From Solirubrobacteraceae bacterium (lineage in GTDB: Bacteria > Actinomycetota > Thermoleophilia > Solirubrobacterales > Solirubrobacteraceae), in NCBI GenBank assembly GCA_030681525.1, contig JAUXSD010000216.1, positions 1-64,000 of the forward strand: a stretch of DNA of 64,000 nt, in the 5' to 3' direction. Positions within the stretch are counted from its first letter, which is position 1; each line of letters opens with the position of its first letter. The notes below the pieces were generated by a model. That model saw only the letters and a program-made list of their open reading frames with translations, did not search any database and was not told the DNA's origin. A program made the translations under genes and the position numbers. Below, piece by piece: positions 17,951-31,756 of this stretch.

Positions 17951-19954
17951 TCATGCCGGCGCGCGCCACATCCGCCACAGCGGGGGGCCGTCGTCAGGCA
18001 GGCGGATCTCGTCGACGACGGCAAACCCGTTGCGCCGATAGAGCGCGACGTTGCGCGGCGTTGTCGCTTCGAGGTAGGCCGGCAGGCCCTCGCGGTCACA
18101 GCGCGCGAGCATCGGCCTCATGAGCGCCGTGCCGATGCCCCGGCCCTGCCATTCGGGCAGCACGCCGAGAAACGGCAGGTAGAGGTGCGGCTCACCCGGG
18201 TGGTGGCGGTCCATGAACGCCATGGCCTTGATCGCACGGGCCAGGCCGCGGCGCCAGACGGCCGCCATGACCGGCAGCAGTCGCACGCTGTCGAGCGGGC
18301 GCAGCTGCCACGCCCCCGGGGGCGTCCAGAGCGCCGCGGCGATGACGGTCTCGGTCGTGTACGTCTCGTCGTGGGGCAACGCGAGCCGCGGCAGGACGAG
18401 CGAGCCGTACATCCGCTCGAGCCGGTGCAGCCGGTCGCTGGGGTCCGGGAAGAAATACGCGGACACCGGGTCGTCGAGGAACGCCTGCGCCAGCACGCGC
18501 GCGATGCGCTCGACGTCCTCGGTGGTCGCCTTGCGCACGGCCGGCGCGGCGGCGCCCGTCGGACCGCCGCCCGCTGCGAGCTCGCGCACGGCCTGGTGCG
18601 TGCGAAACACGCCGTGCGGATCCCAGTCCGCCTTGACCGCCACGAGGCGCTCGCCGCTCGCCCCGAACGCGTGGGTCATCCGCGAGCCGCCCTCCGCGCC
18701 GAGGAAGTTCGGGTACGCGGCCCCGGTCGACCAGGGCTTCATGTCGCCGCCGAACGCGCGGGCGAGGGTGCGACAGCGCGCGTCGTCGCGCGGGTCATCC
18801 CAGAGCAGGAGCGGGTGCACGATGAAGCGCGCCTCGCGACCGGCCAGCGGCGAGTGCTCGGGCCCGGCGCGGCGGACGGCGCCGCCCCACGCGACGACGA
18901 ACACCTGCGACGGCCCCGCCGGCAGCTCGGCGGCGCGCGCGACGAGCACGTCGACCGCCGCGTCGGGCAGGTCGACGACGCTCTCTGCCGTCCAGTAGTT
19001 GCGGTAGCCGGGCGGATCGTCGACGGAGCACTGGAACTCGGCGTAGGTCGTCGGGCCGAAGAAGTCGGCAGCGGGACCCAGCGCCCGGATCGGCGCCAGC
19101 GCCCGCTCGCCGTCGGCGACGCCGCCGGCCCACATGCCGAGCACCGCGATCGCCGGGCGGCCGCGCAGCTCGGCGGGCACGTCGTCGTCCTCGGGCGCGG
19201 TGATGAACGCGCAGGCCAGCGAGAGCTCGCCCGCTGCGCCGTTCATGACGTCGCGGAAGGCGCGCATGACCTCCCGCGCACGGGCGCGCTCGAACAGCGC
19301 GACGCCGGCCCACACCGCGGGACCGAGCGGATGCAGCTCGAGCTCGAGCGCCGTCACGACGCCGAAGCTGCCGCCGCCGCCGCGCAGCGCCCACAGCAGT
19401 TCGCGATTCTCGTCGGCCGACGCGCGCACGATCCGGCCGTCCCACGTGACGAGCTCGGCGGCGACGAGGTTGTCGCACGCCAGGCCGTGCTTGCGCTCCA
19501 GCCACCCCGAGCCGCCGCCCAAGGTCAGCCCGGCCACGCCGGTCGTCGACACGCGGCCACCCGTCGTCGCGAGCCCGTGGACCTGCGTCGCGCGGTCCAT
19601 GTCGGCCGCGGTCGCCCCGCCGCCGACACGCACGGTGCGCCGCGCGGCGTCGACGTCGACGCCGTTCATGCCGCGAACGTCGAGCACGACACCGTCGTCG
19701 CACAGCGACAGGCCGGCGACCGAGTGTCCCCCGGACCGCACGGCGACCGGCAACTCGTGATCGCGGGCGAACGCCAGTGCTGCCACGACGTCGTCGACGA
19801 CGACGCACTCGGCGACGATGCGCGGCCGGCGGTCGATCATCGTGTTGAACAGGGTGCAGGCGTCGCGGTAGGACGCGTCGCCGGGCTCGTGCACGCCGCC
19901 GTGGAGGCGAAAGCGCAGCTCGTCGAGGCTGGAGTCGGTGCGGGTGGTGGACAT
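17951..19954 (-). CDS. FAD-binding (BBE-type) oxidase fused to a GNAT acetyltransferase
   Basis: A 667-residue fusion. Residues ~1-460 are a PCMH-type FAD oxidase: RSGGHSVAGLSL carries the His that covalently binds FAD in berberine-bridge-enzyme relatives. GVAGLTLGGGSGWLERKHGL occupies the position where bicovalent enzymes have a Cys, so the flavin should be attached through His only. ALRGGGGSFGVVT follows. Residues ~472-667 are a complete GNAT domain starting VRKATTEDVERIARVL, with the acetyl-CoA loop PEWQGRGIGTALM and the C-terminal ATTPRNVALYRRNGF. A Gly/Ala-rich linker joins them in one continuous frame. ATG 19954 precedes STTRTDSSLDEL. A TPR-LuxR regulator lies upstream on the same strand. 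Substrate unknown; oxidation and acylation of one product is a reasonable guess. Confidence 0.83.
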   Translation of the reverse strand: MSTTRTDSSLDELRFRLHGGVHEPGDASYRDACTLFNTMIDRRPRIVAECVVVDDVVAALAFARDHELPVAVRSGGHSVAGLSLCDDGVVLDVRGMNGVDVDAARRTVRVGGGATAADMDRATQVHGLATTGGRVSTTGVAGLTLGGGSGWLERKHGLACDNLVAAELVTWDGRIVRASADENRELLWALRGGGGSFGVVTALELELHPLGPAVWAGVALFERARAREVMRAFRDVMNGAAGELSLACAFITAPEDDDVPAELRGRPAIAVLGMWAGGVADGERALAPIRALGPAADFFGPTTYAEFQCSVDDPPGYRNYWTAESVVDLPDAAVDVLVARAAELPAGPSQVFVVAWGGAVRRAGPEHSPLAGREARFIVHPLLLWDDPRDDARCRTLARAFGGDMKPWSTGAAYPNFLGAEGGSRMTHAFGASGERLVAVKADWDPHGVFRTHQAVRELAAGGGPTGAAAPAVRKATTEDVERIARVLAQAFLDDPVSAYFFPDPSDRLHRLERMYGSLVLPRLALPHDETYTTETVIAAALWTPPGAWQLRPLDSVRLLPVMAAVWRRGLARAIKAMAFMDRHHPGEPHLYLPFLGVLPEWQGRGIGTALMRPMLARCDREGLPAYLEATTPRNVALYRRNGFAVVDEIRLPDDGPPLWRMWRAPA

Positions 19955-19995
19955 GCGACGATCCTCGCGCCGTGGCCGAGGCGCAGCTTCACCGC

Positions 19996-20029
19996 AACCG
20001 GCCATCGTGCGAGATGGCCGAAACCGGCC
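19996..20029. promoter_or_regulatory. Inverted and direct repeats between the LuxR gene and FAD-GNAT gene
   Basis: CGGCCATC (19999-20006) and GATGGCCG (20013-20020) form an 8-bp inverted repeat with a 6-base loop. AACCGGCC is also repeated directly at 19996-20003 and 20022-20029. The element lies between the TPR-LuxR stop (20040) and the FAD-GNAT start (19954), so it may be a terminator for the regulator or an operator for the oxidase. Confidence 0.4.
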
Positions 20030-20039
20030 AGTGACGGCG

Positions 20040-21662
20040 TCAGAGCAGGCCGTGCCGGGTGGCGTACGCCACGGCGGCGGCGCGCGACGGCACGCGCAGC
20101 TTCGCTCGGATGTTCGCGATGTGGCGGTGAATCGTGTGCGGGCTGAGAAACAGCCGCTCGGCGATCGAGGCGTCTCCGAGTCCCTGCGCCACGTAGCGCA
20201 GGATCTCGACCTCACGCGCGCTGAGCTCGTCGGTGGCGGTGCCACGGCTGCCGCGCGGCGTGTGCAGCAGGGCCAGGGCCTCGCGCGCTGCGCGTCCGTG
20301 CGCTGCGGCGCCCTCGCAGCGACCGAGCGCCTCCAGCGCGCCGGCCAGAAGCAGCCGCGCGCGGGCCGCCTCGAACGGCGCCGAGCAGGCATCGAACAGA
20401 TCGCCCGCGTCCTCGGCCGCCCGCCGGGCGGCGTCGTGGTCGCCCGCCGCCGCCAGCACCTCGGCGAGCACCAGGCGGCTACGCCCGCGCATGTACGGCG
20501 TCAGCGGCGCGGCCTCGCGCTCGAGCTCGGCGGCCGCAGCCGCCGCGCCGGCGCCGTCGCCCTCCGCCGCGCGAGCGCGCGCCAGCAGCTCGAGCGCGGG
20601 GACGCGATCGAAGACGCTCGCGCCACCGGCCAGCCGGCGCAGGACGCGGTCGGCCGCGTCGACCGCCGCGCCGGGGTCGCCGTCCAGCAGGTCCAGTTCG
20701 GCCACGCCGAGGATGGCCTGCGGCAGCGGCAGCGCCGCTTCGAACAGCGCACGCGCCTGGGCGAGCTCGCCTTGGCGCACGCGCAGCCGGCCGAGGCGGA
20801 CGTTGCTCGGCGCCGCGAGCGCCGGGCGCGTCGTGCTCAGGTCCTCGATCGCGCTGACGAGCTCCGTCTCGGCCGACCTCCAGTCGCCGCCGGTCGCCAG
20901 CACCTCGCCATACGCGGTGCGACAGACCCCGAAGAAGTGCCGCGCGTGCCACGTCGCCGACCAGCTGTGCATCGCGCGGCACCACTGCGCCGCGCGCCCG
21001 AAGTCGCCGACGTCCGCGCAGGCGGAGACCGTGTGGCAGAGCGCCCAGCCGGGCGCGGCGGTCTCGGCGAAGTCCTCGCCGACCGCCAGCGCGGCGCTTT
21101 CCTCCAGGCGTCGCAGGCCGTCCTCGATCGCTCCCGCCGCCACGAGGGCGCTGCCGAGGATCGCCAGGGCCACCACCTCCACCCCGCTGTCCGCGATGCC
21201 CCGCGCGAGCTCCAGTGCCTCGACGGCCCCCCGCTCGGCGGACGGCGGATCGGAATGGACGAGCAGCGCGATATCCGACTCGAGCAGCATGATCCACGCC
21301 TGCTCGGCGCAGGGCTCGTGGTCGCGGACGAGCGATCGCGCCCGCCGCAGCCATGCCGATGCGACTGCGTCGTCGCCGTGGAAGTCGAGATGGTCCGAGC
21401 CGAGCCACATCGCCGTGCGAGCCGCGCCGCGCGCGTCGCCGGCGCGCCGGTACCCGCGATAGGCGCGCTCGCGCGCGTCCAGCGTTGCCCGCTGGTCGCC
21501 CTGCCACCACGCCGCGCGGCTCAGGCCTTCCCACGCCTCGGGCGCGTCCCCCTCGGCGACGGCCGCCTCGAAGCGGGCGCGCGCCACGACCCAGTCCGCG
21601 CGCGCGAGCGCCGCGCGGCCCGCCGTCAGCGAATCCGCCCGGCTGGCCTTCGGCGTGCCCAT
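20040..21662 (-). CDS. LuxR-family regulator with TPR-like sensor region
   Basis: A 540-residue regulator without an ATPase domain. Residues ~10-460 are Ala-rich helical repeats of TPR type (LSRAAWWQGDQRATLDARERAYRGYRRAG and similar units). The C-terminus is a LuxR/FixJ helix-turn-helix: LSAREVEILRYVAQGL, then IAERLFLSPHTIHRHIANIRAKL. The domain order matches the protein encoded at 46080-47720, and both end in the same HGLL tail, so they are paralogues. It sits directly upstream of the FAD-GNAT oxidase gene on the same strand and is the obvious candidate for its regulator. The inducing signal is unknown. Confidence 0.85.
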   Translation of the reverse strand: MGTPKASRADSLTAGRAALARADWVVARARFEAAVAEGDAPEAWEGLSRAAWWQGDQRATLDARERAYRGYRRAGDARGAARTAMWLGSDHLDFHGDDAVASAWLRRARSLVRDHEPCAEQAWIMLLESDIALLVHSDPPSAERGAVEALELARGIADSGVEVVALAILGSALVAAGAIEDGLRRLEESAALAVGEDFAETAAPGWALCHTVSACADVGDFGRAAQWCRAMHSWSATWHARHFFGVCRTAYGEVLATGGDWRSAETELVSAIEDLSTTRPALAAPSNVRLGRLRVRQGELAQARALFEAALPLPQAILGVAELDLLDGDPGAAVDAADRVLRRLAGGASVFDRVPALELLARARAAEGDGAGAAAAAAELEREAAPLTPYMRGRSRLVLAEVLAAAGDHDAARRAAEDAGDLFDACSAPFEAARARLLLAGALEALGRCEGAAAHGRAAREALALLHTPRGSRGTATDELSAREVEILRYVAQGLGDASIAERLFLSPHTIHRHIANIRAKLRVPSRAAAVAYATRHGLL

Positions 21663-21773: not shown

Positions 21774-22988
21774 TCACGTCGCCCCGGCCTCGGCGTAGGC
21801 CGCCTCGCGGCGCGGCGCCGGCGGTCTGAGCAGGGCGGTCAGTCCCGCCGCCGCGGCGAGGATCGGGCCGGACGCCGCGATCACGAGCGCCACACGCGGC
21901 CCGACCGCGGTCACGAGCAGACCGCCGGCCCCGACCGCGCCGAGCTCGGCGCTGTTGCGCGCCGCGTTGTAGGCGGCAAACGCGCGGCCGTGGACGGCCG
22001 CCGGCACACGCGCCGAGATGAGCCCGCGCAGCAGCACGTTCTTGACGCCGTGGCCGACGCCGCCGACGAGATACCCGGCGAACGCCACGGGCAGGATCGC
22101 CCACGTGGCCTGAGCGCCCATCCCGGCGCCCTGCACGGCGAGCGCGACGAGCGCCGCCGCGGCGATGATCCGCGGCGGCACGCGGCGGGCCAGCGCCGTG
22201 GCGCCGCTGACCATGCCGGCCATCCAGGCGCAGACGAGGAGCGCGTACGCGGTATCGCTCGCGCCGACGACGTCCTTGAGGTAGAAGATCTCGACCGTCA
22301 GGGACGCCGAGATGAACAGCAGCGCTCCGACCGCGGCGGCCAGCGTGATCCGCAGGACCCGGTCGCGGCGCAGCACCCGGAAGCCCTCGAGCGCGTGCAG
22401 CCGTTCGCCCGGCACCCGCGCGCTGGGCGGGCGGCGGGCGCGCATCGTGCCCGCGGCGATGGCGATGGCCAGGAACGTCACGGCGTTGGCCAGCAGGGCC
22501 GTCTGCGGGCCGAGCGCCGCCAACCCGGCGGCCAGCAGCGGCCCGGCCGCGAAGCCCGCGTAGCGCGCCGACTCGACGACACCCGTGGCCTCGGTGACGC
22601 GCCCGGCGCCGGCGACGGCCGGGATCAGCGTGAACTCGGCCGGCTGGGCGAACGCGTTGCCGATCGTCAGCAGCGCCGTCAGCGCCAGGATCGCCGCCAG
22701 CTCACCACCGCTGAACGCCAGCGCCGCGGCGACCGCCGCCTGAGCCAGCGACGCGAGGACGAGCACGCGGACGCTCTCGCAGCGGTCGGCGACCAGGCCG
22801 GCCAGGGGCGCCAGGAGCACCATCGGCAGCAGCGTCGCGGCGAACAGCGCCGAGACGGCCAGGCCGCTGCCGGTCAGCGCGTGGACCTGCAGCGCCAGCA
22901 CGATGAGGGCCAGCAGATCGCCGGCCGCCGAGAGGAAGACGGCGCCCGCCAGGCAGCGCAGGTCGCGGGACATGGCGGGCGGGGCCAT
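21774..22988 (-). CDS. MFS transporter (12-TM efflux type)
   Basis: A 404-residue major facilitator protein with 12 predicted helices. Helices 2-3 carry LLAPLAGLVADRCESVRVLV (motif A, with Asp and Arg), and helix 5 has GPLLAAGLAALGPQ. It resembles the enterobactin-exporter/macrolide-efflux branch (MFS_3-like). It lies 3 bases downstream of the FAD oxidase gene (22992-24395), so the two are surely cotranscribed and the exporter probably exports the oxidase's product or protects against it. Confidence 0.82.
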   Translation of the reverse strand: MAPPAMSRDLRCLAGAVFLSAAGDLLALIVLALQVHALTGSGLAVSALFAATLLPMVLLAPLAGLVADRCESVRVLVLASLAQAAVAAALAFSGGELAAILALTALLTIGNAFAQPAEFTLIPAVAGAGRVTEATGVVESARYAGFAAGPLLAAGLAALGPQTALLANAVTFLAIAIAAGTMRARRPPSARVPGERLHALEGFRVLRRDRVLRITLAAAVGALLFISASLTVEIFYLKDVVGASDTAYALLVCAWMAGMVSGATALARRVPPRIIAAAALVALAVQGAGMGAQATWAILPVAFAGYLVGGVGHGVKNVLLRGLISARVPAAVHGRAFAAYNAARNSAELGAVGAGGLLVTAVGPRVALVIAASGPILAAAAGLTALLRPPAPRREAAYAEAGAT

Positions 22989-22991
22989 CGG

Positions 22992-24395
22992 TCAGGCCGC
23001 GGGGCGGATGTTCTGGTTCAGGCGGAAGCGATTCTCCGGGTCGTACGCCGCCTTGATGCGCGCCAGCCGAGCGTGGTTGGCGCCGTAGCTGGCACGCACC
23101 GCGGCGTCTCCCTCCTCGAGCAGGCCGGGGAAGTTGAAGTACGTCTGGCCGTTGGAATGCGGCGTCGCGGCGCCGAGGAACGCGCGGGTGTAGTCGATGT
23201 TCGAGGCGTCGCCGGCGGGGTCGTCCCAGGTCGAGTCGACGCTCAGCATCCACTCCGAGCTGCGGTCGCCGAAGGCCGTCTCGCCGGCGCCGACGCGTCC
23301 CATCGCCCCGCCGCAGTGACGGACGATGACGAGCGTCTGCGCCGACGGGCGGCGGTCAGACCAATCTGCCGTCGTCGTGATCGCGGCGTCGGAGAACCCG
23401 TCGAGGTACAGCGCCTTCCAATAGCGGCGCGCGCCCGCGGGGAAGTACGGATCCAGCGACGCCTGGAAGTCGAGGTACGAGACGGGACCGCTCAGGTCCA
23501 GCAGCGGGGTGCTGAGCTCGCGCAGCGCACGTGTGGCGCGCTCGCCGTCGACCGGGTCGCCGGCCCACATGCCCGCCACGCCGACGTACGGCGCGCCGCG
23601 CAGCGACTCGGGCAGCTCGTCGACGACCGGCAGCGACCAGACGAGGCCGGCGGTGGACAACTCGTCGGGAGCGCCGGCTACGGCGTCGCGCCACCCGGCC
23701 AGCACGCGCACGGCGTCCTCGATCGGGTAGGCGACGTTCAGGGCGAACACCTCGGGCCCGAGCTCGTGCACGCGCAGCTCGAACGACGTGACCACGCCGA
23801 AGTTGCCGCCGCCGCCGCGCAGGGCCCAGTGCAGGTCGGCGTGCTCGCCTGCGCTCGCCCGCACGCGGCGGCCGTCGGCGAGGACGACCTCGGCCGAGAC
23901 GAGGTTGTCGACGGTCATCCCGTCACGCCGGCGCTGATGCGACACGCCGCCGCTGAGCGCCAGGCCGGCGACGCCGGTGTCGGACACCACGCCGCCGGGC
24001 GCGGCGAGACCGTACGGCGCGGTCACGCGGTCGACGTCGCCCCACGTCGCGCCGCCCTGCACGTGGACCGTGCGGGTCGCGGCGTCGAGGCTGACGCCAC
24101 GCATCGTCGACAGGTCGATCACCAGTCCCTCGTCGACGACCGCGGTACCCGCCACGTTGTGCCCGCCGCCGCGGACGGCGAGCGGCAGCCCGCGCTCGGC
24201 GGCGAAGCGCATGGCCGTGGCGACGTCGGCGGCGTCGGCGCAGCGCGCGACGACCGCCGGGCGCTTGTCGATCATGCCGTTCCACACCCGGCGCGCGGCG
24301 TCGTACTCGGCATGATCGGGCGAGATGACCGCACCGGTCAAGCGCTCGGCGAGCGCAGCGGCGAGGTGGGTGCGGGGGGTGGGCGCGACGGCCAT
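22992..24395 (-). CDS. FAD-binding (BBE-type) oxidoreductase
   Basis: A 467-residue flavoprotein oxidase. The PCMH FAD domain has RGGGHNVAGTAVVDEG with the covalent-FAD His, GVAGLALSGGVSHQRRRDGM (no second Cys), and ALRGGGGNFGVVTSFEL. The C-terminus YDPENRFRLNQNIRP is the usual berberine-bridge end. These enzymes oxidise sugars, alkaloids or polyketide alcohols with O2. ATG 24395 has an AAGGAG site 6 bases upstream. It is a paralogue of the FAD half of the fusion at 17951-19954. It is divergent from the BTAD regulator at 24513 and shares a 117-base promoter region with it that holds SARP-like repeats. Confidence 0.88.
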   Translation of the reverse strand: MAVAPTPRTHLAAALAERLTGAVISPDHAEYDAARRVWNGMIDKRPAVVARCADAADVATAMRFAAERGLPLAVRGGGHNVAGTAVVDEGLVIDLSTMRGVSLDAATRTVHVQGGATWGDVDRVTAPYGLAAPGGVVSDTGVAGLALSGGVSHQRRRDGMTVDNLVSAEVVLADGRRVRASAGEHADLHWALRGGGGNFGVVTSFELRVHELGPEVFALNVAYPIEDAVRVLAGWRDAVAGAPDELSTAGLVWSLPVVDELPESLRGAPYVGVAGMWAGDPVDGERATRALRELSTPLLDLSGPVSYLDFQASLDPYFPAGARRYWKALYLDGFSDAAITTTADWSDRRPSAQTLVIVRHCGGAMGRVGAGETAFGDRSSEWMLSVDSTWDDPAGDASNIDYTRAFLGAATPHSNGQTYFNFPGLLEEGDAAVRASYGANHARLARIKAAYDPENRFRLNQNIRPAA

Positions 24396-24428
24396 GGGGT
24401 GCTCCTTCGATGGGGACCCGCCAAGCCT

Positions 24429-24503
24429 GCGTCCACGGCGCCCGCCCTCCGTCCGCGACAGCGTCCGGGATGCGTCCCGCGCGCGTCCGGGGCCGGATAG
24501 GCT
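24429..24503 (+). promoter_or_regulatory. Heptameric direct repeats at 11-bp period with -10 box (SARP-type operator)
   Basis: GCGTCC(G/C) occurs at 24461-24467, 24472-24478 and 24483-24489, exactly 11 bp apart; related copies lie at 24429 (GCGTCCA) and 24449 (CCGTCCG). Eight bases after the last repeat is TAGGCT (24498-24503), a fair -10 hexamer, ending 9 bases before the GTG at 24513. Streptomyces SARP regulators bind 7-bp direct repeats with 11-bp periodicity whose last copy is 8 bp from the -10 box, so the layout fits the rule closely. The element lies between the BTAD regulator and the divergent FAD-oxidase/MFS operon. Confidence 0.6.
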
Positions 24504-24512
24504 CGGCGGGCC

Positions 24513-27500
24513 GTGCTCGAACTGCGCCTCCTCGGTGGTCTCCGTGCCGCGGTGGACGGGCGGCCGGTCGAGCTGCCGGCCGACGCGCGGGCGCGCGAGC
24601 TGCTGGCCCGGCTGGCGCTGTCGCCGGGGCCGCACCCGCGCTCGGCGCTGGCCGGCCGCCTGCGCCCCGACGTCCCGGAGCAGAGCGCCCGCAAGACGCT
24701 GCGCAACGCCCTCTACGAGTTGCGCCGGGCACTCGGACCGGCGGGCGCCGAAGCGCTGGCGGTCAGCGGCCAGCGCGTCGGGCTGGGCCCCGCCGGGGTT
24801 TGGGTCGACCTGTGGGAGTTTCGCCGCTGCCTCGCCGACGGGCGTCTCGAGGCCGCCGCCGAGGCGGGTCATGGCGAGCTGCTCGACGGCTTCGACGGCG
24901 ACTGGGCGCTGCGCGCGCGGGAGGAGCACGCCGCCGAGCTGGCGGGTGTGCTCGCCGCGCTGGCCGCGCGTGCCGAGCAATCCGGCGACGTACCCGCCGC
25001 GGTCGCGTGGGCGCGCCGGCGCGTCGCTGCCGAGCCGCTGGCCGAGGCGGCGCATCGCGAGCTCATCCGCCTGCTTGCGCTCGGCGACGATCGGCCGGCC
25101 GCGCTCGCCGCCGCCCGCGTCATGAGCGACCGCCTGCGCGCGGAGCTTGGGGTCCCGCCCTCGGCCGCGAGCCGCGCGCTCGTCGAGGCCGTCCGCCGCG
25201 GCGTCGTCGCGCGGCAGGCCCCGGAAGCCGCCACGCGGGTCGCACCCCCGCTGCCGGCCGCCCTGGCCGCCGCGGAGCACCCCGCGGGCCGCGAGCCCGC
25301 GCTGGCGCGGCTCGAGCAGGCGTGGGCGGACGCCGCGTCGGGAGCACAGCGCTTCGCCGTCGTCACCGGCGAGGCGGGCATCGGCAAGACCACGCTGGCG
25401 GCGGAGCTCGCCCGGCGCGTCCACGCGCAGGGTGGCGCGGTGCTGCTCGGGCGCAGCGACGAGCACGCGCTCGTGCCCTTCCAGCCGTGGATCGAGGCGC
25501 TGGAGCGACTGCTCGACGCGCTGCAGGCCGGTGACGCCGATCACTGGCTGAGCGCGCACGACGGGGCGCTGGCGCGCCTGCTGCCGGCGCGCAGCGCGGG
25601 GCAGGCGGCGACCGGCGGGCCGCGCGAGCGCTACCTCGCGTTCGACCTCGTGCGGGCGCTGCTCGACGACGTCGCCGCGCGCCGGCCGCTGCTGCTCGTG
25701 CTCGACGACGTCCACTGGGCGGACGCGGACTCGCTCCTGCTGCTGCGCCACCTCGCCCGGTCCGCTCCGCGCCGGCGGCTGCTGGTCGTCCTCAACGCCC
25801 GGTCCGACGAGATCGAACCGGCCGCCGCCCAGACCTTGGCCGAGCTGCGTCGCGAGGGACCGCTCGTCGACATCGCGCTCGCCGGCCTCGACGAGGACGC
25901 GGTGGCGGCGGTGATCGCGCGGCACAGCGGGGTCGCCGACCGCCAGTCCGCGCAGCGCTATCGCACGCGCAGCGGAGGCAACCCGTTGTTCCTCGGGGAG
26001 CTCCTGCGCGCGGCCCAGGACACCGTCGCTGACGTCGCGGGTCCGCCGGCGGGCGTACGCGACATGATCGCCCGCCGCCTGGCGCGGCTCGATCCGCCCG
26101 CCGTGCGCGCGCTCGAGGTGGCAGCGGTCTGCGGGGTGCAGTTCGACGTGAGCGTGCTCGGGCGTGTCGACGACCGGCCGGTCGTCGACGTCCTCGAGGC
26201 GCTGGATGCGGCGATCGACGCGGCGCTCGTCGTGCAGAGCGACCGGCGCGGACGCTACGCGTTCGCGCACGCGCTCGTCAGCGAGGCCATCGTCCACGGG
26301 CTGGCGCCGTCGCGCCGCGCACGGCTGCACCTGCGGGTCGCCGACGTCCTCGCCGACCGGCACGACGCGGGCGGGGCCGGCGCCGGCGCGGTCGTCCGTC
26401 ACCTGCGCGGCGCCGGGCCGCTGGCCGGCGACGACCGCCTGGCGACGTGGGAGCTGGCCGCCGCGCGCGAGGCCAGTGCCGCGCTGGCCCACGCCGACGC
26501 GGCAACGCACCTCGAGGCGGCGCTGGCCGCGCGGTCAGGCGCTGCGGGTGCCGAACGGGCAGAGCTCCTGCTCGAGCTCGGCCGCGCCAGCGACCGAGCC
26601 GGGCGCAGCGGACGGGCACGCGCCGCGTTCGCCGAGGCCGCGGAACTTGCCACCACCGAGAACGACTCGCCGCGCCTTGCCCGAGCGGCCCTCGGCCACG
26701 GCGGGACGGCGGTCGTCATCGCCGCGGCCGACGCGACGACCGTGCGGCTGCTCGAGGCTGCGCTGGCGGCCGTGCCGGCCGGCGATGCGGCGACGCGCGC
26801 CCGGCTGCTCGCGCGGCTGTCGGTCGAGCTGTACTACAGCGACCCGGATCGGGCCCGCGAGCTCGGCGCGCTCGCGGTCGAGCGGGCGCGCAGCACGAAC
26901 GACGCCACGGCGCTGGCGGCGGCGCTGAACGCACACCGCGTCGCGCTGTGGACCCCGCACCACGTCCATGAGCGGCTGGCCGTCGCCGGCGAGATGGTGG
27001 CCGCCGCCGACGCGGCCGGTGATCGCGCGGCGATGCTGCAGGGGCGCAACTGGCGCGTCGTCGACCTGCTCGAGCTCGGCCGGGTCAGCGCGGCGGCGAC
27101 CGAGATCGACGCGTATGAGGCGCTCGCCGAGGCGGTCGCGCTTCCGCACTTCGGCTGGTACGTGCCGCTGTGGCGCGGCACGCTCGCGATGCTGACCGGC
27201 CGGTGGGACGCGGCGGACGAGTTGGCAGAGCGGGCGCTCGCGCTCGCGCGCCGGGCCGACGATCCCAACGGGCCGCTGTTTGTCGGCATCCAGCGCGAGC
27301 ACACCCAGTTCACCCAGCGGCGGATCGCCGAGATCGACCGCGCACGCCTCGTCGCCGAAGGGGAGGCTTCGCCCGCCACCGACGGGTGGCGCGTCCACCT
27401 GGCCCTCGTCGACGCCGAGACCGGAGCGATCGAGGACGCGCGTCGCCTCGTCGCCGAGCTCGCCCGCGACGGCGCCCGCGCGCTGACGATGGACGTCAAC

Positions 27501-27905
27501 TGGCACGCCGCCTCGATCCTCGCCGACGCCGCGGTGCAGGTGGGCGACCGCGAGGCGGGCGCGACGCTGTACGCGCTGCTCGAGCCGCACGCCGCCCTGT
27601 TTCCGCTCATCGCCCGTGCGGTCGGATGCCTGGGTTCCAACGAGCTCTACGTCGGGCGCCTGGCCGGCCTGCTCGGCCGCCACGACGAGGCCGAGGCGCG
27701 GTTGCGCCGCTCCGTGGCCGAGAACGATCGCGCCGGCGCCGGGCCCCACGCCGCCCTCGCGCTGATGCGCCTCGGCGAGGTGCTCGGGGCGCGCGGGGAG
27801 CGCGACGCGGCGCGCGAGGTCCTGCAGCAGGCCCGGCAGCGGGCGGACGCGCTCGCCATGCCGGCGCTGGGCGCCGACGTCCGGCGGCGGCTGGAGGCGA
27901 CCTGA
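24513..27905 (+). CDS. BTAD/AAA-ATPase transcriptional regulator (SARP/AfsR-like)
   Basis: An 1130-residue regulator starting at GTG 24513. Order: N-terminal winged helix (~1-85, LELRLLGGLRAAVDGRPVEL), bacterial transcriptional activation domain (~90-230), AAA/NB-ARC-like ATPase with Walker A GEAGIGKTT (~286-294) and Walker B LLLVLDDVHWAD (~395-406), then ~600 residues of TPR-like helices. No C-terminal LuxR helix-turn-helix is present. AfsR/SARP proteins of this kind activate secondary-metabolite genes, using ATP binding as a switch. The near-leaderless promoter with SARP-like repeats suggests autoregulation and control of the divergent FAD oxidase/exporter pair. It converges on the second BTAD gene with a 3-base gap. 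Confidence 0.87.
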   Translation: MLELRLLGGLRAAVDGRPVELPADARARELLARLALSPGPHPRSALAGRLRPDVPEQSARKTLRNALYELRRALGPAGAEALAVSGQRVGLGPAGVWVDLWEFRRCLADGRLEAAAEAGHGELLDGFDGDWALRAREEHAAELAGVLAALAARAEQSGDVPAAVAWARRRVAAEPLAEAAHRELIRLLALGDDRPAALAAARVMSDRLRAELGVPPSAASRALVEAVRRGVVARQAPEAATRVAPPLPAALAAAEHPAGREPALARLEQAWADAASGAQRFAVVTGEAGIGKTTLAAELARRVHAQGGAVLLGRSDEHALVPFQPWIEALERLLDALQAGDADHWLSAHDGALARLLPARSAGQAATGGPRERYLAFDLVRALLDDVAARRPLLLVLDDVHWADADSLLLLRHLARSAPRRRLLVVLNARSDEIEPAAAQTLAELRREGPLVDIALAGLDEDAVAAVIARHSGVADRQSAQRYRTRSGGNPLFLGELLRAAQDTVADVAGPPAGVRDMIARRLARLDPPAVRALEVAAVCGVQFDVSVLGRVDDRPVVDVLEALDAAIDAALVVQSDRRGRYAFAHALVSEAIVHGLAPSRRARLHLRVADVLADRHDAGGAGAGAVVRHLRGAGPLAGDDRLATWELAAAREASAALAHADAATHLEAALAARSGAAGAERAELLLELGRASDRAGRSGRARAAFAEAAELATTENDSPRLARAALGHGGTAVVIAAADATTVRLLEAALAAVPAGDAATRARLLARLSVELYYSDPDRARELGALAVERARSTNDATALAAALNAHRVALWTPHHVHERLAVAGEMVAAADAAGDRAAMLQGRNWRVVDLLELGRVSAAATEIDAYEALAEAVALPHFGWYVPLWRGTLAMLTGRWDAADELAERALALARRADDPNGPLFVGIQREHTQFTQRRIAEIDRARLVAEGEASPATDGWRVHLALVDAETGAIEDARRLVAELARDGARALTMDVNWHAASILADAAVQVGDREAGATLYALLEPHAALFPLIARAVGCLGSNELYVGRLAGLLGRHDEAEARLRRSVAENDRAGAGPHAALALMRLGEVLGARGERDAAREVLQQARQRADALAMPALGADVRRRLEAT

Positions 27906-27908
27906 TCC

Positions 27909-30900
27909 TCAGCCCTGCTCGGCGAGCATCGCGCAGCGCCGCGCGTCGAGCGGCTGGCCCCACGCACCGAACTCGGCGGCGGCGCGATGCAGGTGATCGC
28001 GCGCCTCGTCGCGGCGCCCGCCGGCGCGCGCGACCCAGCCGCGTACCTCCGCGACCGCGGCGTGCCACGCCGGCGGGAGCGCGATGACCTCGAGCGCGGT
28101 CTCGCAGGACTGTGCGTAGCGGTCGGCGCGACCGACATCGCCGGCGCGGGCGGCGGCGATCGCCGCCGGGACGACGAACGCGATGCGGCAGGTCGGGCAC
28201 GTCTCGGCGGGGCCGCGGATCGCGTCCTCGGCCTCCCGCACGAGCTCGAGGCCGGCGGCCGGCTCGGCGGCCGCCTGCACCATCGCGCCGTAGATGCGAT
28301 CGAGCGTGTGGTGGCCGACCTCGGACTCGCGCGCCATCAGCAACGCGTCGGCGAGAAACGGCCGCGCGAGCTCGCAGCGGCCGCGGTACGTCGCCACCTG
28401 GGCGCGCCCGAGGAGCGACAGCGCCTCCCCCGCGACGGCGCCGATGGCGCCGTGCAGGCGTGCGCCCTCGGCGAAGTCGCGGTCGGCCTCGTCCAGCCGG
28501 CCCGCGAGGATCTCGGCCTCCCCGCGCAGGGTGAGCGCGAACGCGTGGCCGCGGGCCGCGCCGATCCGCTCGGCCTCGGCGGCGAGACCGTCGGCGAACG
28601 CGATGATCTCGGCGTTGGGCAGCCCGCCGTGGAGCATTCGCTCGGTGACGCACAGCTGCCCGTCGAACACCCGGGTGGCGATCTCGGGCAGATGGTGCGT
28701 GGCGCGCAGGTACTCCCGCAGCCGCGCGGGCAGCTCGCCCTGCGCGTGAGCGGCCAGGGCGTGAGCCCACGTCGCATCGAGGATCGCGCCCGGGTCCCCG
28801 AGCTCGATCGCGAGGCGATGCGCCTCGTCGGCCTTCGCCGCGGCGGTCGCGGAATCGGCGTAGGCGCCGATCGCGGCGGCGGCGCTGAGGGTCAGCGCCT
28901 CGGCCAGGCGGCCGACGGTCGTGCGCGGCGTGGCGCCGTCGAGCGTGCGCAGCGCGCCGGTGGGGTCGCTGGCCTTGAGCTGTGCGAGCGCCTGGCGCGC
29001 CTTCAGCTCCTGGGCGGCGGGTTCACCGACCGCCTCCGCGGCGGCGGCGTAGGCGGCGGGAGCCCCGCTGTCGCCCAGGGCGTCGAGGATCTCCGCCCGC
29101 AGGCAGAGCGCCTCGGCGTGGGCGGGCCGCTCGAGGAGCAGCCGGTCGACCTGGGCGCGCGCATCGGCGTAGGCGCCGATCTTCGTCGCGTGGCGCGCCG
29201 CGCGCAACAGCCACGGGACCGCCGCGGCCGGCCGCTCGCCCTTCAGCCAATGACGGGCGATGAGCGTGGCCGCGGCGCCCGCGACCTCGAGCCGGCGCGC
29301 GGCGTCGCGGTGCAGGCCGACGCGCCGATGCGGCGCCATGTCGTCGGTGAGCGCCTGGCGGACCAGCGCATGGCGGAAGCGGTAGCGCGTCCCCGCGACG
29401 ACGAGCAGTCCGGCGTCCAGCGCCGCGTCGAGCAGCGCGAAGGCGGCGGCCTCGTCGTGGCCGGTCAGCGCGAGGACGCTGGCGATGTCGAGGTCGTCCT
29501 CGACGATGGCCAGGGTGGTCAGTGCGCCCAGCGCCTCCGCGTCCAGGCCGGCGAATCGCTCCCTGATCGCGGCGCGGACGGTCTCGGGCAGCGGGCTCGA
29601 CGGATCCGTGCCGAGCGAGCGCGCGAGCTCGAGGGCGAAGAACGGGTTGCCCTGCGCGCTGTGGACGATCGCGTCCACCGCGTCCGGGGCGGGCCGCTGC
29701 GCCGCGGCGAGCGTCACGAGCTGCGCGATCGCGGCGTCCTCCAGCGGCCCGAGCTCGAGCGCCAGCGTGCGGTCGCCGCGCGCGAGCCGGCGGATGCCCT
29801 GCGGCAGGCTCGTCCGGATCCACTCGGCGCGGCAGGCGAGCAGCACGACGAGGGGATGCCGGCCGCCGCCGGCGACGAGCTGGTGCAGCACGTCGGCGGT
29901 CGCCTCGTCGCAGAGGTGGGCGTCCTCGATGCACAGCAGCGTCGGCGAACCGCCCTCGGCCAGCGCAAGCGCGCGCCAGAACGCCGCGACGACCTGATGG
30001 CGCGTCAGGGCGCTGTCCAGCGGGGGCGCCGGCCCGGCCAGCGGGTTCAGCTCGGCCAGCACCGAGTGCGTGCGACGTGGCAGGGCATCCAGCGGCCCGC
30101 GGCCATGAACGAGCAGCTGGGCGACAGCCGACCCGATCGGGTCGTAGGGCGCGCCGGTGGCGCTGGCGCCGGTGCTGAGGATCCGCCAGCCGCCGGCGAC
30201 GGCACGGCGCATCGCCTCGCGGCAGAGCGCCGACTTGCCGATGCCGGCCCTGCCTCGCACGAGCACCGCCGCCGCACCGCCCTCCGCGACCCGCTCGCGC
30301 AGGCCGTCGAGGTCGGCCAGCTCGAGCCCCCGGCCGACGAAGGTGTCCTCGCCGAGCCGGATGCCTGCCGTGCACAGGTCGTAGAGCGCGCGCGTCTGCA
30401 CCCCGGGATGGGTGCCGAGCTCACGGATCAGCGCGATCCGCAGCCGCTCGTAGCAGCGCAGCGCAACGTGCCGCCGGTCCGCTTCGATGGCCGCCCGCAT
30501 GAGCTGCTGGCAGGCGATCTCGTCGGTCGGCTCGATCTCCACCAGCCGCTCCCACTGCTGCGTCCGGCGCAGAAGCTCGGCGAGCACGGCCCGCGCCCGC
30601 CGGCGCGGTTGCTGCGTCCACTCCTCGTACGGGCTGGCGGGCAGCACGTCGCCCCGGTATGCCGCCGCGACGCGAGCGCACGCACGGTCGTCGCCGCGGC
30701 GCAGGGCGAGGTCGCCCTCGGTCAGGAAGCGCTCGGCGTCGCAGATCACCGTGCGCGAGGGGAAGAGCGCGACCTGGCCGCCGCGCAGCACGACCGCATC
30801 CGCCTCGCCGAGCACGCGGCGGGCATGGTGCGCCGCCTTGCGCAGGTTCGCCGCCCCCGCCTCCCGCCCGAGGTGCGGCCAGAGGTGCTCGAGCACCTGG

Positions 30901-31121
30901 TCGCGGACGAGCCGGTGTCCATCCGCGAGCGCCAGGAGCGCCACGAGCTCCTGAGCCCGGCGCCCGGGCCAGTCGGCCTCGAGGATCTCGCGGTGGCCGA
31001 TCCGGACACGGAAGCCGCCCAGCAGGTCGATCCGCGCGGCGTCTGGTGTGGGTGGCGCTACGCCGATCCCGCAGGACCCCCGCCGGCCGAGCCCCCGCCC
31101 GCGTACACCGCGCGGAACCAC
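27909..31121 (-). CDS. BTAD/AAA-ATPase transcriptional regulator
   Basis: About 1,070 residues. A winged helix (ARIDLLGGFRVRIGHREIL, then WPGRRAQELVALLALADGHRL) and BTAD (~100-270) are followed by an ATPase with Walker A RGRAGIGKSALC (~290-301), Walker B-like LLCIEDAHLCDE, and a long TPR-like C-terminal half. No LuxR motif ends it. The start is uncertain: no ATG, GTG or TTG lies close to the first domain, the nearest in-frame one is GTG 31121, and that adds an unnatural Gly/Arg-rich lead overlapping the TetR 3' end by 64 bases. Translation may be coupled to the TetR gene, or a non-canonical start may be used. Target genes are unknown. Confidence 0.8.
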   Translation of the reverse strand: MVPRGVRGRGLGRRGSCGIGVAPPTPDAARIDLLGGFRVRIGHREILEADWPGRRAQELVALLALADGHRLVRDQVLEHLWPHLGREAGAANLRKAAHHARRVLGEADAVVLRGGQVALFPSRTVICDAERFLTEGDLALRRGDDRACARVAAAYRGDVLPASPYEEWTQQPRRRARAVLAELLRRTQQWERLVEIEPTDEIACQQLMRAAIEADRRHVALRCYERLRIALIRELGTHPGVQTRALYDLCTAGIRLGEDTFVGRGLELADLDGLRERVAEGGAAAVLVRGRAGIGKSALCREAMRRAVAGGWRILSTGASATGAPYDPIGSAVAQLLVHGRGPLDALPRRTHSVLAELNPLAGPAPPLDSALTRHQVVAAFWRALALAEGGSPTLLCIEDAHLCDEATADVLHQLVAGGGRHPLVVLLACRAEWIRTSLPQGIRRLARGDRTLALELGPLEDAAIAQLVTLAAAQRPAPDAVDAIVHSAQGNPFFALELARSLGTDPSSPLPETVRAAIRERFAGLDAEALGALTTLAIVEDDLDIASVLALTGHDEAAAFALLDAALDAGLLVVAGTRYRFRHALVRQALTDDMAPHRRVGLHRDAARRLEVAGAAATLIARHWLKGERPAAAVPWLLRAARHATKIGAYADARAQVDRLLLERPAHAEALCLRAEILDALGDSGAPAAYAAAAEAVGEPAAQELKARQALAQLKASDPTGALRTLDGATPRTTVGRLAEALTLSAAAAIGAYADSATAAAKADEAHRLAIELGDPGAILDATWAHALAAHAQGELPARLREYLRATHHLPEIATRVFDGQLCVTERMLHGGLPNAEIIAFADGLAAEAERIGAARGHAFALTLRGEAEILAGRLDEADRDFAEGARLHGAIGAVAGEALSLLGRAQVATYRGRCELARPFLADALLMARESEVGHHTLDRIYGAMVQAAAEPAAGLELVREAEDAIRGPAETCPTCRIAFVVPAAIAAARAGDVGRADRYAQSCETALEVIALPPAWHAAVAEVRGWVARAGGRRDEARDHLHRAAAEFGAWGQPLDARRCAMLAEQG

Positions 31122-31756
31122 AGCTCGGTCAGCTGGCGCACCGCCTCGCGCATGTCGCGGCCGTTGCGGATGACCTCGATCGTCAGGTGGCGCTCGACCA
31201 TCGCGCACAGCGCCTGCGCCGCCACCCGCGCCGGGATGTCGCCGGGCGCCTGGCCGCGCAGCTGGTCGCGCGCGATGCGCGCCTCGGCGCCGGCGATGAA
31301 GCGGTTGACGTAGGGCTCCCACTGCGACGGCATGTGCTCGTCGGAGCCGTACAGATGCGCCGCGAGCACGAGGATCGGGCCGTTGCGGTTGACGACCCCC
31401 ACGAACCGCGCCAGGCCGAGCGCGAGCTCCATCCGCGGATCCCCCGACCCCTCGAAGTACGGCGACGCCGCGTCGTCCATGTCGGCGAACGCCTGCTGGA
31501 TGAGGCGGTCCATGACCGCGCGCTTGTTCTCGAAGTAGAAGTAGACCGTCGTGCGCGATACGAACGCCCGCCGCGCGATGGTGTCGATCGTGACCTGCTC
31601 GTGCGAGCCCTCGCTGAGCAGCTCGCGGGCGGCCTCGAGGATCGCGTCCTCGGTCGCGTTGCGCGGCGCCAGGAGGCCGGGCGCCGCCGCGGCACCGTCT
31701 CCCGCCGTGCCCGGTCCGTTACCGGCGGGCTTCGAAGTGGGCGGCGATTCGCTCAC
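31058..31756 (-). CDS. TetR/AcrR-family transcriptional regulator
   Basis: A 232-residue repressor-type protein. A Pro/Gly/Ala-rich 30-residue lead precedes the TetR helix-turn-helix: ATEDAILEAARELLSEGSHEQVTIDTIARRAFVSRTTVYFYFENK. An alpha-helical ligand/dimer domain follows. Its 5' end overlaps the 3' end of the carboxyltransferase gene by 38 bases, so it is the last or a late gene of the FAS operon unless an inner start is used. In other actinobacteria FasR-type TetR proteins control fabD operons, so control of fatty acid synthesis here is a plausible inference. The Gly-rich tail is low complexity. Confidence 0.87.
   Translation of the reverse strand: MSESPPTSKPAGNGPGTAGDGAAAAPGLLAPRNATEDAILEAARELLSEGSHEQVTIDTIARRAFVSRTTVYFYFENKRAVMDRLIQQAFADMDDAASPYFEGSGDPRMELALGLARFVGVVNRNGPILVLAAHLYGSDEHMPSQWEPYVNRFIAGAEARIARDQLRGQAPGDIPARVAAQALCAMVERHLTIEVIRNGRDMREAVRQLTELWFRAVYAGGGSAGGGPAGSA

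What the first reader, a model, noticed from the sequence alone, without database searches (positions are those of the whole stretch)
24429..24503. SARP-type 11-bp-period direct repeats before the BTAD regulator
Three GCGTCC(G/C) heptamers begin at 24461, 24472 and 24483, a strict 11-bp period, and the last ends 8 bp before TAGGCT at 24498. This is the geometry reported for Streptomyces SARP operators. Here it lies between a BTAD-ATPase regulator and a divergent FAD-oxidase/MFS operon, suggesting that the regulator controls itself and the oxidase/exporter module, possibly a small secondary-metabolite or detoxification locus. The promoter would be nearly leaderless (GTG 9 bases past the -10).
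Basis: partly seen in the sequence, partly recalled or inferred. Interest (0 to 1): 0.68.

Follow-up and report, generated by a model that had tools for sequence, protein, structure and literature searches.

The report
SARP-type switch for an oxidase operon
The 11-base repeats are real and look like the landing site of an AfsR/SARP-type activator protein, but they point away from the activator's own gene and towards a neighbouring oxidase-exporter operon, and the same layout recurs in about 26 related bacterial gene pairs.

Summary
In detail: GCGTCC(G/C) begins at 24461, 24472 and 24483, TAGGCT is at 24498 and GTG at 24513. It is not chance. Across 29 homologous BTAD-ATPase genes, self-similarity in the upstream gap peaks only at lag 11 (z = 24.8) and lag 22. 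A repeat model trained without the window ranks this site first of 127,936 positions.

The SARP reading holds, but the direction should be reversed. On the strand of the divergent gene the repeats read nnnACG (TTGACG, TTCACG; CGGACG here). In 21 of 26 homologs exactly 9 bp separate the last unit from a (G/C)AnnnT -10 (4 more at 9+11). On the regulator side the spacing varies. This is the AfsR-afsS promoter layout.

In the window: five units at 24489-24439 (minus strand), 9 bp, CAGGCT 24429-24424, Shine-Dalgarno, ATG 24395 of the FAD oxidase-MFS operon.

Two oxidase orthologs settle the direction. In G003 (72% identical) and G164 (77%) such an array precedes the oxidase, while the related regulator gene lacks one, and in G164 it lies on another contig. 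The G164 units are also GGACG.

The regulator gene has a separate, near-leaderless promoter. Best reading: a large SARP activating one adjacent effector operon. New member of a known kind; no binding was tested.

The parts
24439..24489 (-). array of five SARP-type units read towards the oxidase: CGGACG 24489-24484, GGGACG 24478-24473, CGGACG 24467-24462, CGGACG 24455-24450, CGGGCG 24444-24439 (steps 11, 11, 12, 11 bp)
   Evidence: held-out homolog models rank it first in the window
24430..24438 (-). 9-bp spacer between last unit and -10 (conserved length)
   Evidence: offset 9 in 21 of 26 homologs plus 4 at offset 20
24424..24429 (-). predicted -10 element CAGGCT of the oxidase operon, (G/C)AnnnT type
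   Evidence: promoter model trained without the window: rank 1 of 127,870 with 3 or 4 units and flexible spacing, rank 2 with two rigid units
24417..24417 (-). predicted transcription start of the oxidase operon (about 7 nt past the -10)
   Evidence: inference from promoter geometry, not measured
24402..24407 (-). Shine-Dalgarno AAGGAG of the oxidase gene
   Evidence: sequence
22992..24395 (-). FAD_binding_4/BBE oxidase gene (467 aa), predicted target
   Evidence: PF01565, PF08031; orthologs 73-78%
21774..22988 (-). MFS transporter gene, next in the operon
   Evidence: PF07690/PF05977; starts 3 bp after the oxidase stop
24513..27905 (+). large SARP-type regulator (OmpR-type wHTH, BTAD, AAA_16 STAND ATPase, TPR), 1130 aa, GTG start
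   Evidence: PF03704 37.7 bits over cut-off 22.1, PF13191, AlphaFold pLDDT 94 and Foldseek best hits AfsR 8k60/8hvr and EmbR
24684..24734 (+). codons of recognition-helix residues 58-74 (SARKTLRNALYELRRAL); Y68 at 24714-24716 aligns with AfsR S91
24498..24503 (+). TAGGCT, predicted -10 of the regulator's own near-leaderless promoter
   Evidence: TAnnnT 6-10 nt before the start codon in 28 of 33 homologs

Best explanation
The 24439-24489 array is a SARP (AfsR-type) activator site for the divergent FAD oxidase-MFS operon. Two or more molecules of the BTAD-ATPase regulator encoded at 24513 would bind side by side on one face of the DNA, one per 11-bp unit. The unit nearest the oxidase sits 9 bp upstream of a weak -10 (CAGGCT), so the bound protein stands in for a missing -35 element and recruits RNA polymerase to the oxidase promoter. 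The ATPase/TPR part would gate this on an unknown signal. The regulator gene is transcribed from its own near-leaderless promoter (TAGGCT, GTG 24513), which the array adjoins only incidentally or perhaps represses. Shown here: array, polarity, fixed spacing, conservation with the oxidase, family of the protein. Inferred: binding, activation, signal, substrate.
For: Lag-11 signal z = 24.8 over 29 homologous gaps. Window-free repeat model ranks the site 1 of 127,936. The divergent-side -10 is at exactly 9 bp in 21/26, with binomial P = 4e-36 against a 1.2% background. Window-free promoter model: rank 1 of 127,870 with flexible spacing, rank 2 with two rigid units. Leave-one-out over homologs: rank 1 in 21 of 24, rank 2 in the rest. 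The 72%-identical oxidase in G003 carries an array of the same polarity with 9 bp to GATGGT although its regulator is upstream in tandem. The 77%-identical oxidase in G164 carries CGGACG/GGGACG units, one 12-bp step, 9 bp, GACCCT, while the related regulator (63% in the DNA-binding and BTAD part, same KT...Y helix) is on another contig without an array. The AfsR cryo-EM paper gives the same register: 11-bp repeats -40 to -19, -35 TTCAGC at -38 to -33, -10 CACTGT (PMC10936776). Top PDB fold hit is AfsR.
Against: In the window the unit next to the -10 is degenerate (CGGGCG) and one step is 12 bp; a rigid three-unit promoter model does not find it (rank 412). Four of the seven closest oxidases (L117, L119, L120, L122) have no such array. 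The two AfsR base-contact residues (T88, R92) align with N65 and E69 here, so base readout differs. The residue-68/base-3 association (19:0 versus 0:10) rests on about 5 changes on a poorly resolved tree and has an exception (L093), so it is not significant after phylogeny. No binding or expression data exist.
Confidence: 0.78

Rival explanations
1. One reading: the repeats are the regulator's own operator, activating the TAGGCT promoter 8 bp downstream, with the oxidase operon co-regulated.
For: In the window the third heptamer ends exactly 8 bp before TAGGCT, the distance reported for AfsR, Aur1PR4 and FdmR1 (PMC7040171).
Against: Repeat-to-(-10) spacing on this side is 2-43 bp in homologs and no offset stands out. 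Motif polarity and fixed spacing fit the other side. Regulator genes L075 and L093 have no array while the oxidase orthologs in the same genomes do. The regulator -10s are closer to consensus (TAnnnT), so they may need no activator.
Confidence: 0.08
2. Dual use: the regulator activates the oxidase operon from the array and at the same time represses its own promoter, because bound protein covers the -35 region of TAGGCT. (Compatible with the best explanation, an addition to it.)
For: In the window the distal units lie directly upstream of TAGGCT; arrays lie between the two promoters in nearly all homologs.
Against: Distance to the regulator promoter varies, up to 43 bp; two relatives lack the array at the regulator gene altogether.
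Confidence: 0.3
3. The array is bound by another protein; the adjacent BTAD regulator is a bystander.
For: No binding data; the own genome also holds a second BTAD gene (27909-31097).
Against: Arrays accompany this one regulator clade across genera with different divergent genes; unit base 3 follows recognition-helix residue 68 (19:0 vs 0:10); AfsR itself binds this kind of site.
Confidence: 0.1
4. Chance repetition in G+C-rich DNA.
For: G+C-rich gap; short motif.
Against: Shuffles 4/20,000; held-out model rank 1; 28 homologs; two oxidase orthologs.
Confidence: 0.01

Closest known systems
AfsR-afsS promoter of Streptomyces coelicolor (large SARP; cryo-EM 8HVR/8JKE/8K60; PMC10936776)
   Same: SARP domain fold (Foldseek E 1e-9), STAND-type ATPase plus TPR architecture, 11-bp direct repeats, TT at positions 3-4 of the unit in many homologs, unit register to a weak (G/C)AnnnT -10 (CACTGT)
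   Different: Three to five units rather than two; unit CGGACG here instead of TTCAGC-like; base-contact residues T88 and R92 replaced by N65 and E69; target is the adjacent divergent operon, not a global regulon
PimR (SARP-LAL) operator upstream of pimM, S. natalensis (PMC5930380, PMC10972967)
   Same: Three heptamers with 4-bp spacers, large ATP-binding regulator
   Different: PimR operator is CGGCAAG and does not overlap the -35 box; here the last unit is at the fixed AfsR distance from the -10
PapR2 (GTCAGSS) and OtcR SARP sites (PMC7040171, PMC4393881)
   Same: Heptamer/hexamer direct repeats every 11 bp, the last one 8 bp before the -10 in SARP promoters generally
   Different: SARPs serving antibiotic clusters; here a single enzyme-transporter operon in a genome whose relatives are Solirubrobacterales
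EmbR of Mycobacterium tuberculosis (2FEZ)
   Same: wHTH plus BTAD fold, sequence similarity
   Different: Ends in an FHA domain, no ATPase/TPR

Membership tests
SARP family regulator (large type) | N-terminal OmpR-type winged HTH followed by BTAD | tested here: met
   BTAD over Pfam cut-off; AlphaFold model best matches AfsR and EmbR over the whole 238 aa. The wHTH did not reach a Pfam model on its own.
SARP family regulator (large type) | C-terminal ATPase (NOD/STAND) and TPR | tested here: met
   PF13191 E 2e-30; TPR_12 just under its cut-off
SARP-regulated promoter | direct repeats with 11-bp period | tested here: met
   one 12-bp step in the window
SARP-regulated promoter | last repeat 8 bp (heptamer) / 9 bp (hexamer) upstream of the -10 of the target gene, correct polarity | tested here: met
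   in the window through a degenerate last unit
   8 bp in the window, but variable in homologs
SARP-regulated promoter | specific binding and transcription activation | not testable with these tools
   needs EMSA, footprint, reporter
Antibiotic gene-cluster regulator | lies in a biosynthetic cluster | tested here: inconclusive
   neighbours are an oxidase, an MFS, a LuxR-TPR and a second BTAD regulator; no synthase seen among the five proteins scanned

The most novel reading that the evidence does not exclude
Solirubrobacterales carry a large set of plug-in modules: one STAND-type SARP next to one effector (SnoaL-like protein, methyltransferase, hydrolase, MFS pump, FAD oxidase), all built on one rigid promoter layout, with DNA specificity set largely by one recognition-helix residue (aromatic at 68 with G at unit base 3). 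That would make SARP recognition partly decodable and would mean that large SARPs often serve as local small-molecule switches rather than antibiotic-cluster activators.
Probability: 0.3. Interest if true: 0.62.

Novelty: new member of a known kind. Interest (0 to 1): 0.47.

Why it matters
SARPs are studied mainly in Streptomyces antibiotic clusters; the paper searches here found no report that combines SARP and Thermoleophilia. The comparative set gives a strict promoter layout (11-bp units, 9 bp, (G/C)AnnnT) that can be used to predict the target gene and the transcription start of uncharacterised large SARPs, and a candidate specificity residue that can be tested by swap experiments. It also corrects the direction of control at this locus: the regulator's likely target is the oxidase-exporter operon.

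Tried and rejected
Looking for the 8-bp geometry on the regulator side across homologs failed. TTGACG as a plain -35 with a 17-bp spacer to a consensus -10 in the divergent direction was looked for by eye in the printed gaps and not seen. The closest regulator homolog L075 was expected to have an array in front of it and has none; its genome has the array at the oxidase ortholog instead. A rigid three-unit promoter model misses the window site (rank 412) because of the 12-bp step. The residue-68/base-3 association was tested on a tree and is not significant after allowing for kinship. L076, L088 and L093 have no convincing array in front of the regulator; L010 has only a weak one. Other copies of the motif that would make a regulon in the own genome were not found.

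Full report
Observation. Two further units continue the array away from the regulator (CCGTCCG at 24449, after a 12-bp step, and a weaker CGCCCG at 24439). In shuffles of the gap an exact 6-mer triple at lag 11 appears 4 times in 20,000, and five CGTCC within 61 bp never. In the 4.56-Mb genome the triple occurs only here.

Neighbours. To the right is a 1130-aa protein with BTAD, AAA_16 ATPase and TPR signals. An AlphaFold model of residues 1-238 (pLDDT 94) has AfsR and EmbR as its best PDB fold matches. To the left, divergent, are a FAD_binding_4/BBE oxidase and an MFS transporter, 3 bp apart. The own genome has only two BTAD genes over the cut-off, both in this window.

Comparative test. Homologous regulators were collected from the family and order and from GTDB contigs; identity of the DNA-binding/BTAD part is mostly 44-54%. 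In 29 upstream gaps, 6-mer self-matches are enriched at lag 11 (200 observed, 22 expected, z = 24.8) and lag 22 (z = 6.8); lag 12 is mildly raised (z = 3.8) and no other lag stands out.

Direction. On the regulator side the distance from the last unit to the TAnnnT box is variable. Read on the other strand, the units are TTGACG, TTCACG, CGAACG, CGGACG and so on, and the unit nearest the divergent gene is followed by exactly 9 bp and (G/C)AnnnT in 21 of 26 homologs, with 4 more at 20 bp (9+11, one degenerate unit missed) and at most 2 at any other offset up to 39 (background 1.2%, binomial P 4e-36, not corrected for kinship). This is the register of the AfsR-afsS promoter: two 11-bp repeats from -40 to -19, a -35 TTCAGC at -38 to -33 inside the upstream repeat, and CACTGT as -10 (PMC10936776). 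If that -10 occupies -12 to -7 as usual (my assumption), the corresponding hexamer of the downstream repeat (-27 to -22) is also 9 bp away. Other papers give '8 bp upstream of the -10' for the repeat (PMC7040171; PMC4393881).

Window promoter. A unit-plus-(-10) model trained on 24 homologs ranks CAGGCT 24429-24424 (minus) second of 127,870 with two rigid units and first with three or four units and flexible spacing. With close relatives excluded, leave-one-out ranks are 1 in 21 of 24 homologs and 2 in three. The predicted leader has AAGGAG at 24407-24402, 6 nt before ATG 24395.

The array goes with the oxidase. Of six orthologs of the oxidase at 73-78% identity, two have the array. In G003 (72% over 469 aa in a BLASTP comparison) the regulator lies upstream in the same direction, its own start has no array, and the array fills the gap before the oxidase: TTGACG, TTGACG, CTCACG, CTGACG, GTTGCG, 9 bp, GATGGT. 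In G164 the oxidase is preceded by CGGACG, GGGACG, [12 bp] GGGACG, GGGACG, 9 bp, GACCCT, with the same GGACG core as the window. The G164 regulator most like ours (63%, helix SARKTLRDAVYELRR against SARKTLRNALYELRR) is on another contig and has no array. In the other four, different sequences lie upstream.

Regulator promoter. TAnnnT stands 6-10 nt before the start codon in 28 of 33 homologs, 6 nt in 18, so the first base of the start codon would often be the first transcribed base.

Partners. In homologs the divergent gene varies: SnoaL-like protein, class I methyltransferase with an Rv2258c-like HTH, alpha/beta hydrolase, SCO4226-like protein, MFS transporter.

Specificity. Over 29 gene pairs, an aromatic residue or histidine (W/Y/H) at position 68 of the recognition helix goes with G at unit base 3 (19:0), other residues with C, A or T (0:10). 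Position 68 was the best of the DNA-binding-domain positions in the scan and aligns with AfsR S91. On a tree there are about five changes and one exception (L093), too few for significance. I treat it as a lead.

Verdict. The array is most likely a SARP-type activator site of the oxidase-MFS operon, read away from the regulator. The family assignment rests on sequence, fold and promoter geometry; binding and activation were not tested. The signal sensed and the oxidase substrate are unknown; a small-molecule oxidation-and-export module is a guess from gene content.

Noticed in passing
17951-20392 (-): A second FAD/BBE oxidase (45% identical to the first) appears fused in frame to a C-terminal GNAT-like acetyltransferase (GNAT read by eye); a LuxR-TPR regulator lies just upstream at 20040-21662.
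   Followed up: no
27909-31097 (-): A second BTAD-AAA_16 regulator converges on the first one; a TetR-like gene (31058-31756, read by eye) overlaps its start. No repeat array was found near it.
   Followed up: partly
L119, L120, L122 upstream of the oxidase orthologs: Three oxidase orthologs without the SARP array share another upstream element, about GGAACGRACCGGTYKTGCGCA, suggesting a different regulator.
   Followed up: no
L037/L054 (G016:C7, record CAMCUD010000007.1): The record is titled Bifidobacterium breve MAG, but it has the same length as a contig of a same-family genome here and encodes a Solirubrobacterales-type regulator module; probably mislabelled.
   Followed up: no
L146 3973-6927: In G027 the oxidase ortholog follows a second BBE-type oxidase in tandem, without an array.
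   Followed up: no
window 43195 (+): The two-unit promoter model scores slightly higher here than at the finding (14.3 against 13.2) but drops behind once three units with flexible spacing are required; probably chance.
   Followed up: partly
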